Shown piece by piece: positions 11,562 through 57,164 of a stretch of DNA of 64,000 bases. The stretch is from assembly GCF_950295315.1 (NCBI RefSeq), contig NC_080171.1:116431064-116495063 (forward strand), written 5' to 3'. The translations under genes and the position numbers were made by a program. The notes below the pieces were generated by a model, which saw only the letters and a program-made list of their open reading frames with translations, had not been told where the DNA came from and did not search any database. Positions within the stretch are counted from its first letter, which is position 1, and each line of letters starts with the position of its first letter. The stretch is from Erinaceus europaeus (Eukaryota > Chordata > Mammalia > Eulipotyphla > Erinaceidae).

Positions 11562-12520
11562 TTAAAGGAACCTTCCTGGTGGGTGGGGGTGGGCAGTAGC
11601 GCAGCAGGTTAAGTGCACATGGCGCCAAGTGCAAGGACCAGCTCAAGGATCCTGGTTCAAACCCCCGGCTCCCCACCTAGAGGGGAGTCGCAACACAAGC
11701 GGTGAAGCAGGTCTGCCAGTGTCTGTCTTTCTCTCCCCTCTCTGTCTTCCCCTCCCCTCTCGATTTCTCTCTGTCATATCCAGCAACAGCAATAACAACA
11801 ATAATAACAACCAGGGCAACAAAAATGAGGGAAAATGGCCTCCAGGAGCAGTGGATTCATAACCCTGGAGGCAAAAAAAAAAAACCTCCTGCACTGCTCG
11901 TGGGAATGTAAATTGTTCCAACCTCTGTGGAGAACTCTCAGAAGGCTAGAATCGGACCTACCCTATGACCCTGCAATTCCTCTCCTGGGGATATATCCTA
12001 AGGAACCCAACACACTCATCCAAAAAGATCTGTGTACACATATGTTCTTAGCAGCACAATTTGTAATAGCCAAAATCTGGAAGCAACCCAAGTGTCCAAC
12101 AACAGATGAGTGGCTGAGCAAGTTGTGGTCTATACACACAATGGAATACTACTCAGCTATTAAAAGTGGTGATTTCACTGTTTTTAGCCCATCTTGACTA
12201 GAGCTTGAAGAAATCATGTTAAGTAAGGTAAGTCAGAAACAGAAAGATGAATATGGGATGATCTCACTCTCAGGCAGAAGTTGAAAACAAGATCAGAAGA
12301 GAGAACACAAAGCAGAACTTGGACTGGAGTTGGTGTGCTGCACCAAAGGAAAAGTCTATGGGGTGGGTGGGGGGCTCAGGTCCTGGAACATGAGGGCAGA
12401 GGGCCTAGTGGGGGTTGTATTATGTGGAAAACTGGGAAATGTTATGCAGTACAAACTATTGTATTTGTTGTATTTACTGAGTGTAAAACACTAATCCCTC
12501 AATAAAGAAATAATTAAAAA
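11562..12520 (+). mobile_element. L1 3' end, 5'-truncated, with a SINE inside
   Basis: Flanked by the 12-bp TSD AGAAATTTCTGT (11550-11561 and 12521-12532). The region from 11885 shows the classic L1 ORF2 end and 3' UTR (GTGGGAATGTAAATTGTTCC, ATGGAATACTACTCAGCTAT, ATGATCTCACT) and ends AATAAAGAAATAATTAAAAA. A type 1L SINE (11585-11884) was inserted near its 5' end. This 3' UTR type recurs at 26752-26970, 32758-33042 and 56104-56500. Confidence 0.88.
11585..11884 (+). mobile_element. SINE type 1L nested in L1
   Basis: Inserted in the 5' part of the truncated L1 (11562-12520); the L1 sequence AACC(T)TCCTG occurs on both sides as an imperfect TSD. Confidence 0.8.
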
Positions 12521-47954: not shown

Positions 47955-47966
47955 ATTAGAATTTGA

Positions 47967-48036
47967 GGGATGCATTGGATCGACCTTCCCGTGATGCATC
48001 CCGTGAGTACCCATTCATTGGGGAAACTGACGATCC
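47967..48036 (+). ncRNA. Candidate HDV-like self-cleaving ribozyme at the Vingi 5' end
   Basis: Numbered from the first base of the element, the RNA fits the double-pseudoknot layout of hepatitis delta virus-like ribozymes. P1: GGGAUGC (1-7) with GCAUCCC (30-36), 7 perfect pairs. P2: GGAUCG (11-16) with CGAUCC (65-70), 6 perfect pairs. P3: ACC (17-19) with GAU (27-29), one C-A mismatch that a single G-to-A change would explain. L3 is 7 nt, UUCCCGU; one P1.1 pair (C22-G37) is possible. P4: CCCA (44-47) with UGGG (53-56). J4/2 contains CUGA with C61 (48027) as the likely catalytic cytosine. Cleavage would fall before G1, exactly at the TSD boundary. HDV-like ribozymes are known at the 5' ends of R2, RTE-type and trypanosome L1Tc elements. 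Confidence 0.6.
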
Positions 48037-48125
48037 TTCCTAGCCGACTGAATCCACATGGATCCCAGTCACTTTCAAAGCCATTAACTGGCTAAGGAAG
48101 AAGGGCAAACGCTAGAAGAAGAAGA
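47967..48125 (+). mobile_element. Internally deleted non-autonomous Vingi derivative, complete
   Basis: A 159-bp element flanked by a perfect 12-bp TSD, ATTAGAATTTGA, at 47955-47966 and 48126-48137. Its 3' end (about 48085-48125) matches the 3' end of the 52.7-kb Vingi copy: GGAAGAAGGGCAAACGCTAG, the last codons of the ORF (WLRKKGKR stop), plus an AAG tail. Its 5' part is a structured leader (see the ribozyme entry), and an ATG at 48058-48060 may be the old Vingi start codon; a deletion then fuses the leader out of frame to the 3' end. Non-autonomous internally deleted Vingi families have been described in hedgehog; this looks like one of them. It must rely on Vingi protein supplied in trans. 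Confidence 0.85.
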
Positions 48126-48247
48126 ATTAGAATTTGACATTAAGAGGCGGAAAGATGATAACTCTGTTCAATGCAATATCTCCTCCACCCTACCCCCCCA
48201 AAATGATTCTCTAAGTGAAGGAATTTAAAAATCTTTGTACCTCTAAA

Positions 48248-52667: not shown

Positions 52668-54688
52668 TCTTCTTCTTCTAGCGTTTGCCCTTCTTCCGTA
52701 GCCAGTCAACAGCGTCAGGTTGAGCCTGATGTAAAGTTTCAAGACCTCCTCTGAATCTGGAGAGGTGGCAGTCGTTGACTATGTGGGTCATAGTCTGTCT
52801 GTAGCCGCAGGGGCAGTTCGGGTCGTCTCTGGCTCCCCAGCGACGGAACATAGCGGCGCACCGGCCATGGCCTGTTCGATAGCGATTGAGGAGGGCCCAA
52901 TCATAACGTGCTAGGTCAAAGCCGGGTTGACGCTTGCAGGGGTCTATGATGAGGTGTTTGTTCTTTACCTCAGCTGACTGCCAAGTCTGTTTCCAAGAGT
53001 CTGGAACAGAGAAGTTCAGTGTAGGCATAGGGGACCAGATTGGGTGACGAGACATCAAGCGTTGGACAGGGTGGGCGAAGATATCCACGTATATTGGCAG
53101 GTCCGGTCGAGCGTGGACGTGGGAAATGAATTTAGATGATGCCGCATCCCGACGAATATCTGGCGGGGCGATGTTACTAAGAACTGGCAGCCATGGAACC
53201 GGGGTGGGACGGATGGTTCCAGAAATGATCCTCATGGAGGAATATAATTTGGAATCGACCAAGTGGACATGGGGGCTACGGAACCATACTGGGGCACCGT
53301 ATTCTGCAGTGGAATAGCATAATGCCAGAGAGGATGATCATAGTGTGGAAGCGCTCGCGCCCCATGAGGAGCTGGCCAGTCTTGCAATGATGTGATTCCT
53401 CGCGCCCACCTTTGCTGCAGATTTTATGAGATGTTCATGAAATGACAGAGTGCGATCGAGAGTAACGCCAAGATAGACTGGCTGGGCTTCATGCTGGATT
53501 CTCGTATCGCCAAGCTGCACATTAAGCTCACTCGAGGCCGAGGCATGGTGTAGATGGAAAACAGATGATACCGTTTTTGCAGCGCTAGGGATTAGTCGCC
53601 ATTTTTTACAGTAATCAGATATCAGAGACATGTCTTTTGTGAGTGTTTCCTCGAGGATGTTGAACCTGGATGCCTGAGTTGCACAGCAGATGTCATCGGC
53701 GTAGATGAACTTCCTTGAAGAAGTTTCTGGGAGGTCATTGATGTAAATATTAAATAGCGTAGGAGCCAGAACAGAGCCCTGGGGGAGGCCACTTGAGACA
53801 AGTCTCCATCTGCTAGACTTGTCACCCAGATGCACCCGGAATCTTCTATTTTGGAGAAGAAACGATATAGTGTTGGCCACCCATGGAGGCAGGCATCTTG
53901 AGATCTTGACTAGGAGACCACGGTGCCAGACCGTGTCATAGGCTGCTGTGAGATCAACAAAGACAGCACCCGTCTTTAAATTCTTCTGGAATCCATTTTC
54001 AATGTAAGTTGAGAGGGCCGGGGCTTGTTCGCAGGTAGATCTTCCTGGGCGGAAACCAGCCTGGGCGGGTGATAGGAATTTCTCTGTAAGAGGAGAAATA
54101 CGTGACAGAAGCAGCCTCTCAAGGAGTTTGTAACACACGGAGAGGAGAGAAATTGGTCTATAGCTGGCGGCCAGTGTTGGGTCTTTCTTTGGTTTCAAAA
54201 CCGCTATAATCTTTGCACGACGCCAAACTTTGGGCATAGACTCAGATTCCAAGATGTGGGACGGGAATGAAGCGAGCCACTTCTTTGCCGCAGGACCCAG
54301 GTTAAGAATGAGTTCTGGGGTGATGTTATCATAGCCAGCAGCTGCTCCCGGTTTAACCCTCTTCAAAGCGTCTTCCAGTTCAGACAGTGTAAAGGGAGAG
54401 AGTTTTGGAGATGGACAAGATAACCGGAAGTGGGATGACCACTCATGGGAAATTTCTCTTTTCCAGACTGGGTCGATCTTAGCACGTCCAACTTGAGTTA
54501 GGTGACTGGCCACTGAGTTTGGAGATACGGGAGGATGGGAGACGGGAGGGGGTTGGCTACCGGCACCCAGTCTGTGAAGAAGCTTCCAGGCCTTCCTACT
54601 TGAGTGGGTGAAGTTCAGACTTTCCGTGAGTTGTTGCCAGCGGGCTTGGCGTGCTGCATCCAGGGAGGCAATGAGATGGTCAGCCACA
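52668..54688 (-). mobile_element. Vingi non-LTR retrotransposon, 5'-truncated
   Basis: A LINE on the - strand whose 3' end (CGCTAGAAGAAGAAGA) is at 52668 and whose truncated 5' end is at 54688. It is flanked by a perfect 9-bp TSD, TCTGCAGGT, at 52659-52667 and 54689-54697. The target is a type 1L SINE, split into 52531-52667 and 54689-54879. It keeps the reverse transcriptase and C-terminal region; endonuclease and 5' end are missing and no RNase H domain is visible. The 3' tail is an AAG microsatellite, not poly(A), which separates it from L1. The features fit Vingi, a sister group of Ingi described in hedgehogs (Kojima, Kapitonov and Jurka, 2011). The family name is from memory, not a database match. 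Confidence 0.85.
52678..54688 (-). pseudogene. Vingi ORF: reverse transcriptase plus C-terminal Cys/His motif, one premature stop
   Basis: The frame is open from the truncation point to a TGA at 53338-53340, then continues in the same frame to the natural stop TAG ending at 52678. Motifs in order: linker with GYDNITPELI; the RT block with YRPISLL and FRPGRST; LTAAYDTVWH (first catalytic Asp); SGLPQGSVLAPTLFNIY; FIYADD at about 53692-53709 (catalytic Asp pair); KYLGVTLD-like VYLGVTLDRTLSF; and a C-terminal CxCx7Hx4C zinc-knuckle-like motif starting CPCG. The stop lies where related elements carry Arg, so CGA to TGA by CpG decay is the simple explanation; no frameshift is seen. The first 22 or so residues of the longest ORF are antisense SINE, not Vingi. 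Lacking endonuclease, this copy cannot be autonomous. Confidence 0.82.
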
Positions 54689-56103: not shown

Positions 56104-56500
56104 TGTTTTTTTTTTAATTGGGGGATTAGTGGTTTACAGTGGACAGTAAAATACATATGTAATATTTCATAGTTTCCACATAACAGTCTAACCTAGGACC
56201 TAAGCCCCACCCCCCACCCCCCCAGAGTCTTTTACTTTTACTTTGGTGCAAGACAACAAATTCAATCCAAGTTCTGTTTTGTGTTTCCCCTTCTGTTACT
56301 ATTTCTCAACTTCTGTGAGTGGGATCATCCCATATTCATCCTTCTGTTTCTGGCTGATCTCGCTTAACATGATTCCTTCAAGCTCCATCCAAGATGAGGT
56401 GAAGAAGGTGAGTTCATCATTTTTAATAGCTGAATGGTATTCCATTGTGTATCTAGACCACAACTTCCTCAGCCACTCATCTCCACAACATGCTTTCTGA
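56104..56500 (-). mobile_element. L1 3' end, antisense
   Basis: Begins AATTGGGGGATTAGTGGTTT and proceeds through the 3' UTR into the conserved end of ORF2 (GGGATCATCCCATATTCATC, TAGCTGAATGGTATTCCATT). Confidence 0.85.
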
Positions 56501-56569
56501 TCACTACTTGCATTCAATCCTCTGCTGCCCTTGAACATCAGAACATTTTGTCCTTGAAACTCTGTTTCT

Positions 56570-56848
56570 AGGAGTCGGATGGGAGCGCAGTGGGTTAAGC
56601 ACACATGGCGCAAAGCACAAGGACTGGCATAAGGATACTGGTTCGATCCCCCAGCTCTCCACCTGCAGGGAGTCACTTCACAGGTGGTGAAGCAAGTCTG
56701 CAGGTGTCTGCCTTTCTCTCCCCCTCTCTGTCTTCCCCTCTTCTCTCCATTTCCCTCTCCTATCCAACAACGATGACAACAATAATAACTACAACAACAA
56801 TAAAAAAAAAGGATGACAAAAGGGAAAATAAATAAAATTAAAGAAAAG
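56570..56848 (+). mobile_element. SINE type 1
   Basis: Full length; GAAACTCTG on both sides (about 56557 and 56847) belongs to its TSD. Confidence 0.9.
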
Positions 56849-56921
56849 AAACTCTGCTTTCCTGCTTCCAGTGGTACTAACATTATGCTGTAATATTTAT
56901 TTCTTTTTTTTTTTAGGATTT

Positions 56922-57000
56922 TAAGAAAATATTTATTTATTCCCTTTTGTTGCACTTGTTGTTTTATTGTTGGAGTTATTATTGATGTTGTTAGACTCCC
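56922..57000 (-). mobile_element. SINE type 1, internally deleted
   Basis: Antisense tail and linker (TTATTCCCTTTTGTTGCAC) joined directly to the extreme head GACTCCC; the whole body is missing. Confidence 0.7.
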
Positions 57001-57164
57001 TTTTTAATTTTTTTCAAATATTTAATTTATTTATTAATGAGAAAGCTAGGAGGAGAGAGAGAAAGAACCAGACATCGCTCTGTACATGCGCTGCTGGGGA
57101 TCAAACTCAGGACCTCATGCTTGAGAGTCCAGTGCTTTATCCACTGCGCCACCGCCCGGACCAC
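57001..57164 (-). mobile_element. SINE type 3
   Basis: Antisense (TCAGGACCTCATGCTTGAGA ... CGCCACCGCCCGGACCAC). Confidence 0.9.

What the first reader, a model, noticed from the sequence alone, without database searches (positions are those of the whole stretch)
47967..48036. HDV-like ribozyme fold exactly at the 5' end of a Vingi-derived element
P1 (7 perfect pairs), P2 (6 perfect pairs), a 7-nt L3, P4 and a J4/2 with a candidate catalytic C61 occur in the right order to form the delta-ribozyme double pseudoknot. The only flaw is a C-A pair in P3. The predicted cut is immediately 5' of the first element base, at the TSD edge. Ingi-group elements of trypanosomes (L1Tc) carry such a ribozyme at the same place; I know of no report for Vingi. 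If real, it explains how Vingi RNA gets a precise 5' end and why an internally deleted 159-bp element keeps this leader. Weak points: P1.1 has one clear pair, and an alternative pairing (40-42 with 60-62) would sequester C61.
Basis: partly seen in the sequence, partly recalled or inferred. Interest (0 to 1): 0.85.

Follow-up and report, generated by a model that had tools for sequence, protein, structure and literature searches.

The report
Vingi retrotransposon leader resembling HDV ribozyme
A short hedgehog-type jumping gene starts, at its very first base, with a sequence shaped like a known family of self-cutting RNAs; if it cuts, this explains how the element's RNA gets a clean front end, but no cutting has been shown and this copy has two weak spots.

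Summary
A 159-bp element (47967-48125) with a perfect 12-bp target-site duplication begins with a segment that can form the HDV-like double pseudoknot: P1 7/7 and P2 6/6 Watson-Crick pairs, a family-like 7-nt L3, G37 after P1, C61-UGA directly before P2'. A family descriptor has its only 6-bp-P2 hit in the window here; shuffles give 0.3 hits per 64 kb, about 5e-6 per position. HDV_ribozyme is the top Rfam match in a narrow scan, far below threshold. The element is a short internally deleted element: its 3' end equals that of a 5'-truncated retrotransposon in the window, and its leader resembles N-termini of related proteins. N-terminal codons of two divergent relatives can encode the same fold (2 of the 25 best placements; 1 of 120 scrambled templates reached 2). 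Most likely a Vingi HDV-like ribozyme family, a new member of a known kind; activity of this copy is uncertain. No other DNA copy could be fetched, so covariation is untested.

The parts
47955..47966 (.). 5' target-site duplication ATTAGAATTTGA
   Evidence: 12/12 identical to 48126-48137
47967..48125 (+). 159-bp short internally deleted element (SIDE), Vingi-derived
   Evidence: TSD on both sides; 3' 42 nt 95% identical to 52709-52668 of the RT-coding copy
47967..48036 (+). candidate HDV-like ribozyme, predicted cut 5' of 47967
   Evidence: only P2>=6 descriptor hit in 128 kb; RF00094 top of 3 matches listed in the 183-base Rfam scan, 17.1 bits against gathering 50, E 1.9, match begins 2 nt before the cut; its 3' tail is aligned about 5 nt off, so model and candidate catalytic C do not coincide
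47967..47973 (+). P1 5' strand GGGATGC
   Evidence: 7/7 WC with 47996-48002
47974..47976 (+). J1/2, 3 nt
   Evidence: sequence; a spacer is needed in the ribozymes of PMC4908430 (passage)
47977..47982 (+). P2 5' strand GGATCG
   Evidence: 6/6 WC with 48031-48036
47983..47985 (+). P3 5' strand ACC
   Evidence: 2 of 3 pairs with 47993-47995; middle C.A mismatch
47986..47992 (+). L3 TTCCCGT
   Evidence: with the P3 strands 10/13 identical to the Drosophila R2 core read from primers in PMC3414825, all three differences transitions; 18 places in 128 kb, this one included, reach 10/13
47990..47993 (+). CGTG at +24 to +27, cf. the L1Tc Pr77 promoter element CGTG at +25 to +28
   Evidence: and PMC4748587; a 4-mer, weak
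47993..47995 (+). P3 3' strand GAT
47996..48002 (+). P1 3' strand GCATCCC
48003..48003 (+). G37, P1.1 partner of C22 (47988)
48010..48022 (+). P4 hairpin CCCA-TTCAT-TGGG
   Evidence: 4 pairs, -5.8 kcal/mol alone
48027..48030 (+). J4/2 CTGA (CNRA) with candidate catalytic C61 at 48027
48030..48032 (+). ACG where relatives appear to have their start ATG, overlapping J4/2 and P2'
   Evidence: TILPSRLNP vs MILPAEPNP of P0133, best of 56 anchored offsets (26, next 25 and 24); 20 of 5000 shuffles as good
48031..48036 (+). P2 3' strand CGATCC
48080..48125 (+). C-terminal codons (AINWLRKKGKR, stop) and AAGAAGAAGA tail of the parent element
   Evidence: frame 2, local score 54 to the end of P0001; BLASTN over 48084-48125
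48126..48137 (.). 3' target-site duplication ATTAGAATTTGA
52668..54688 (-). 5'-truncated RT-coding copy (PF00078), likely family of the supplier of the machinery; lacks the leader
   Evidence: 9-bp TSD ACCTGCAGA

Best explanation
The first 70 nt of the element derive from an HDV-like self-cleaving ribozyme at the 5' end of the Vingi non-LTR retrotransposon family. In a transcript that starts upstream in flanking DNA, the leader folds into the nested double pseudoknot, C61 acts as general acid, and the RNA is cut between the last flanking base and G1; the released RNA starts at G1, keeps the whole ribozyme, and is reverse transcribed by the Vingi protein that recognises the shared 3' end, so the next copy again begins at G1. 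The 159-bp element is the minimal parasite: ribozyme plus 3' recognition end. In the parent, the start codon seems to lie inside J4/2-P2'. Shown: layout, position at the TSD edge, excess over chance, SIDE anatomy. Inferred: cleavage, transcription from outside, use in retrotransposition. The confidence is for the family-level statement; cleavage by this very copy is about even.
For: Perfect P1 and P2, CNRA, family L3 letters, exact TSD edge; chance about 5e-6 per position, 3e-7 with WC-only P1; RF00094 is the top match of the 183-base Rfam scan with the cut site, P1 and L3 in register; P3-L3-P3' 10/13 like R2; SIDE anatomy as in R2 SIDEs, whose ribozymes cleave (PMC3414825 passages), and trypanosomatid SIDERs, some of whose ribozymes cleave (PMC4035085); leader and tail resemble the ends of related proteins; codons of the P0124 and P0150 N-termini can encode the full core: 2 of the 25 best placements in 171,525 residues, against 0 in 107, 1 in 12 and 2 in 1 of 120 scrambled templates.
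Against: P3 C.A mismatch and a single clear P1.1 pair; nested fold with C61 paired predicted more stable; Rfam score 17.1 against a gathering score of 50, E 1.9, with the J4/2 tail aligned about 5 nt off, and RF00094 absent from the list of the 2-kb scan; of four proteins whose ORFs seem to run through the leader and were checked by name, P0149 and P0141 give no placement; the four best-scoring distinct placements are internal and presumably chance; P0124's peptide likeness to the leader is not significant; no second DNA copy available.
Confidence: 0.78

Rival explanations
1. Decayed passenger (compatible with the best explanation at family level): the family has or had the ribozyme, but this copy does not cleave because P3 is broken, P1.1 is weak and the nested hairpin with C61 paired wins.
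For: Nested MFE -28.9 kcal/mol, C61-G41 pairing probability 1.0 in the 159-nt ensemble; C.A in P3; a single-base change in L3 abolished detectable cleavage in a jewel wasp R2 (PMC3774820).
Against: All Watson-Crick P1 and P2; a perfect TSD suggests a young insertion (inference); a P3 mismatch is recorded in the jewel wasp R2 ribozyme, whose cleavage site was confirmed; a pseudoknot program did not predict P1.1 even in known ribozymes.
Confidence: 0.45
2. The leader is kept as an internal RNA polymerase II promoter (CGTG downstream element near +25 as in L1Tc Pr77), and the ribozyme-like pairing is secondary or accidental.
For: CGTG at +24 to +27 against +25 to +28 in Pr77.
Against: A 4-mer is weak; P1 and P2 are not explained by a promoter; in Pr77 both functions lie in the same bases, so this does not exclude a ribozyme.
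Confidence: 0.1
3. Chance: a strong P1 hairpin next to other short inverted repeats that happen to fit the descriptor.
For: Without the L3 letters and with P2>=5 the descriptor has 26 and 30 rows on the two strands of the window; the descriptor was written with the case in view.
Against: About 5e-6 or less per position at the one position that matters; Rfam match with the cut site in register; codon evidence in other proteins.
Confidence: 0.1

Closest known systems
L1Tc/ingi Pr77 HDV-like ribozyme of trypanosomatids, with its SIDER/NARTc derivatives
   Same: At the first base of ingi-group elements and of their short derivatives; CGTG near +25; ribozyme kept after cleavage (PMC4035085; PMC4748587; PMC8256844).
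   Different: Host and clade; no nucleotide homology tested; P1.1 and P3 weak here; start codon seems to overlap the ribozyme.
R2 HDV-like ribozymes and R2 SIDEs of Drosophila
   Same: SIDE = 5' ribozyme plus 3' end; P3-L3-P3' core 10/13 alike, 7-nt L3 ending CGU (PMC3414825; PMC3774820).
   Different: R2 is rDNA-specific and co-transcribed with 28S; here a dispersed insertion with a 12-bp TSD; J1/2 of only 3 nt.
HDV_ribozyme, Rfam RF00094
   Same: Top match of the 183-base Rfam scan; cut site, P1 and L3 in register.
   Different: 17.1 bits against a gathering score of 50; the J4/2 tail is aligned about 5 nt off.
Vingi-1N non-autonomous families of hedgehog (Vingi-1N3_EE, listed with the number 311 in a table of young families in PMC3183009)
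   Same: Hedgehog Vingi-derived non-autonomous elements; the window copy is probably of this kind (inference).
   Different: Their sequences could not be compared; no ribozyme in the passages read.

Membership tests
HDV-like ribozyme | P1 of 6-7 bp starting at the cut | tested here: met
   7/7 WC, first base at the TSD edge
HDV-like ribozyme | P2 of at least 5 bp in pseudoknot order | tested here: met
   6/6 WC
HDV-like ribozyme | P3 of 3 bp between P2 and P1' | tested here: inconclusive
   2 of 3 pairs, C.A in the middle; a P3 mismatch is recorded in jewel wasp R2
HDV-like ribozyme | L3 with the U and G of the reverse wobble and the P1.1 C (positions partly recalled) | tested here: met
   UUCCCGU: U20, C22, G25; L3 G and U described in PMC3774820
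HDV-like ribozyme | P1.1 of 1-2 bp | tested here: inconclusive
   C22-G37 only; U21/U38 not standard
HDV-like ribozyme | Catalytic C in J4/2 followed by NRA and P2' (NRA recalled) | tested here: met
   C61-UGA-CGATCC
HDV-like ribozyme | Pseudoknot is the preferred fold | tested here: inconclusive
   A nested-only program prefers -28.9 kcal/mol; P1+P4 is -17.3 without P2; no pseudoknot program run
HDV-like ribozyme | Self-cleavage at the 5' junction | not testable with these tools
   needs in vitro transcription
HDV-like ribozyme | Compensatory changes across copies | tested here: inconclusive
   No DNA copies (genome search did not complete); codon level: P0150 allows pair 16-65 as A-U and 19-27 as G-C, P0149 excludes pair 16-65
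Rfam RF00094 as curated | Reaches the gathering score | tested here: not met
   17.1 of 50 bits, so it is not filed under RF00094; this is a score cut-off of one Rfam model, not a defining feature of HDV-like ribozymes at large
Vingi-derived SIDE | 3' end shared with an RT-coding element, TSD | tested here: met
   42 nt at 95%, same AAGAAGAAGA tail, TSDs of 12 and 9 bp
Vingi-derived SIDE | 5' leader comes from the parent's 5' end | tested here: inconclusive
   Frame 2 like P0149/P0150 N-termini (12 of 2000 shuffles as good); frame from nt 64 like P0133 (20 of 5000); no full-length parent DNA available
Vingi-derived SIDE | Parent belongs to the Vingi clade | not tested

The most novel reading that the evidence does not exclude
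Across the Vingi clade the ribozyme and the ORF share nucleotides: the A of the J4/2 CNRA is the A of the start AUG and P2' is the first codons (M-I-x-P lineages), while in the P0149/P0150 lineage the ORF starts at nt 9 and reads through the whole ribozyme in another frame. Folding and cleavage would then directly gate translation, and a mammalian genome would hold recently active retrotransposons that are processed by a ribozyme.
Probability: 0.35. Interest if true: 0.78.

Novelty: new member of a known kind. Interest (0 to 1): 0.65.

Why it matters
HDV-like ribozymes at retrotransposon 5' ends are described for R2, R4, Dong, Baggins and L1Tc (PMC3774820) and trypanosomatid derivatives (PMC4035085). 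Vingi is an Ingi-related clade that expanded recently in hedgehogs (title of Kojima et al. 2011 as cited; Vingi-1N3_EE heads the hedgehog row of young families in PMC3183009). A Vingi ribozyme would put a recently active, ribozyme-processed retrotransposon in a mammal, join the two branches of the ingi group, and explain how 159-bp derivatives keep a precise 5' end. It is directly testable with one in vitro transcription.

Tried and rejected
Rfam at gathering threshold on the whole window: nothing. Second copy of the leader in the window: no convincing one, only the 3' piece. DNA pattern in viral contigs: 0. Protein alignment in viral contigs: 11 stretches matched a pattern, none confirmed; in genome contigs: 41 matched, 4 distant loci, 27-31% identity, no Rfam hit at gathering and no descriptor hit. 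Frame 1 of the whole leader against the first 90 residues of 117 proteins: not significant (841 of 1000 shuffles as good). Third protein search with the P0150 N-terminus found only itself. I first read P0124's PVST..GK as homology to the leader; the scores do not support that, so only the codon-encodability scan is used. P0148 shares GETNDP with P0149/P0150 but was not looked at by name. P2 stacking and the pseudoknot cost were only estimated by hand; no pseudoknot program was run.

Papers: PMC3774820 outline and sections 12, 15, 16, 18, 19; PMC4035085 sections 5 and 9 and passages; PMC3414825, PMC4748587, PMC4908430, PMC10879173, PMC8256844, PMC5753468, PMC12026660, PMC3183009, PMC13188248, PMC4870747 passages only; other titles as search listings. 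PMC3256349, PMC3308841, PMC3185411, PMC3002237, PMC3383444 are not held; what they say is recalled or taken from citations.

Full report
What is there. Window 47967-48125 is a 159-bp insertion with a perfect 12-bp target-site duplication. Its last 42 nt are 95% identical to the 3' end of a second element on the minus strand, 54688-52668, which encodes a reverse transcriptase (PF00078), is 5'-truncated, appears (by eye) to lie inside a SINE, has a 9-bp TSD and ends in the same AAGAAGAAGA. Its RT part is 58% identical to protein P0150 over 441 columns and 96% identical over 73% of the query to P0001, from a 2,072-bp contig of source ena. PMC5753468 and PMC3183009 record Vingi in hedgehogs (passages).

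The fold. With G 47967 as position 1, P1 is 1-7/30-36 (all WC), P2 11-16/65-70 (all WC), P3 17-19/27-29 with a middle C.A, L3 UUCCCGU, G37 directly after P1', P4 44-47/53-56, then C61-U-G-A and P2'. Order and spacing are those of the HDV-like double pseudoknot. J1/2 is 3 nt; in the ribozymes of PMC4908430 there was no activity without a spacer between P1 and P2 (passage).

Chance. A descriptor (P1 7 bp with GU allowed, G after P1', P3 with at most a middle mismatch, L3 of 6-9 nt with U1, C3 and G at 5 or 6, CNRA, P2 of at least 6 bp) has one hit on the two strands, at 47967; with P2 of at least 5 bp one more place appears, on the minus strand; without the L3 letters there are 9 and 14 rows (P2>=6) or 26 and 30 (P2>=5). 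In 320 shuffles of the 64-kb strand it has 98 hits, 6 with all-WC P1: about 5e-6 and 3e-7 per position. The element's first base is one predetermined position. The descriptor was made knowing the case and uses features partly recalled, so read these as orders of magnitude. In the 183-base Rfam scan three matches are listed and the top one of 4227 families is RF00094, 17.1 bits, E 1.9 for the whole library, beginning 2 nt before 47967 with P1 and L3 in register; but its 3' tail is aligned about 5 nt off, so its J4/2 does not fall on C61. In the 2-kb scan RF00094 is not listed. Rfam is thus weak support for the 5' half only.

Active-site likeness. Primers in PMC3414825 give the Drosophila R2 core as ACC-TCCTCGT-GGT. 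The window has ACC-TTCCCGT-GAT: 10 of 13, all three differences transitions, one of which makes the P3 mismatch. On its own this is weak: 18 places in 128 kb, this one included, reach 10 of 13. L1Tc Pr77 has CGTG at +25 to +28; here CGTG is at +24 to +27.

Link of the leader to the parent. Frame 2 of the element reads DALDRPSRDASREYPFIGETDDPS, stop, then ...AINWLRKKGKR, stop; the second part is like the C-terminus of P0001 and of the window's RT copy. The first part has its best matches, among the first 90 residues of 237 fetched proteins, at residue 1 of P0149 (MDLRSRRVPREYP....GETNDP) and P0150 (MDQRSRRIPCEYP..GETNDP); 12 of 2000 peptide shuffles score as high. In frame 1, the codons from nt 64 read TILPSRLNP, best matched by MILPAEPNP at the start of P0133: best of 56 stop-free anchored offsets against 70 near-full-length proteins, 20 of 5000 shuffles as high, but the next two offsets score 25 and 24 against 26. 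If right, the start codon of the main lineage lies in J4/2-P2', and here it is ACG.

Codon test. A protein whose ORF runs through the leader constrains the RNA. All placements of the ribozyme core on 237 back-translated proteins (171,525 residues) were scored. The N-terminus of P0124 (P2 starting at nt 11, as here) is fifth among distinct placements and that of P0150 is in the top 25; the four above P0124 are internal, so high chance scores occur. Two of the 25 best lie within the first 11 nt of an ORF; with 120 scrambled templates this count was 0 in 107, 1 in 12 and 2 in 1. Exact sampling: 74,079 of 2,000,000 synonymous versions of P0124 and 7,051 of 2,000,000 of P0150 satisfy the whole core; for P0124, 405 also form a 7-bp P1 with J1/2 of 2 nt. 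For P0150 all 9 tested pairs and 6 key letters are possible, which 2 of 200,000 random windows match; its codons allow a complete P3, with G19-C27 in place of C19-G27, and A16-U65 in P2. P0149 allows 8 of 9 pairs (16-65 excluded), and P0149 and P0141 give no placement. P0150 was first noticed by its likeness to the leader, so it is not independent; P0124 was noticed by eye for PVST..GK, a likeness that is not significant. The evidence is suggestive.

Against activity of this copy. The nested MFE (-28.9 kcal/mol) extends P1 through 8-10/27-29 and pairs C61 with G41. P1+P4 alone is -17.3; adding P2 and a pseudoknot cost by hand leaves it several kcal/mol less stable. Base A28, which breaks P3, also takes part in the rival hairpin. 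So I hold the family-level ribozyme likely (0.78) and cleavage by this very copy roughly even.

Mechanism. As for R2 SIDEs (PMC3414825) and trypanosomatid SIDERs (PMC4035085), a 5' ribozyme and a 3' recognition end suffice for a parasite of the autonomous element: read-through RNA is cut at G1, and the Vingi protein copies it. Steps after the fold are inferred.

Novelty. (Vingi and ribozyme) lists 3 papers, all on alpha-synuclein by title; (HDV-like ribozymes and hedgehog) none; searches list 3 and 2 papers, of which PMC4035085 and PMC3414825 are used here, and none names a Vingi ribozyme in title or in what I read. The key Vingi paper and the Luptak-group papers are not held, so prior mention cannot be excluded. 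Kind: known; clade and host: apparently new.

Noticed in passing
window 54688-52668 (-): 5'-truncated RT-coding copy, by eye nested in a SINE, with 9-bp TSD ACCTGCAGA and one in-frame stop near 53338.
   Followed up: partly
window 48060-48065: A self-complementary GGATCC downstream of the ribozyme (element nt 94-99) could compete with P2, like the L1Tc downstream attenuator.
   Followed up: partly
L001-L004: Contigs filed under bacterial MAGs encode non-LTR-type reverse transcriptases (27-31% identity to the window's RT), probably eukaryotic contamination.
   Followed up: partly
P0001: A protein from a 2,072-bp contig of source ena is 96% identical (73% of the query) to the window's RT; origin not known, perhaps host DNA in a metagenome.
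   Followed up: no
window 11829-12197 (+) and 56299-57003 (-): ORF fragments that look like L1 ORF2 pieces (by eye).
   Followed up: no
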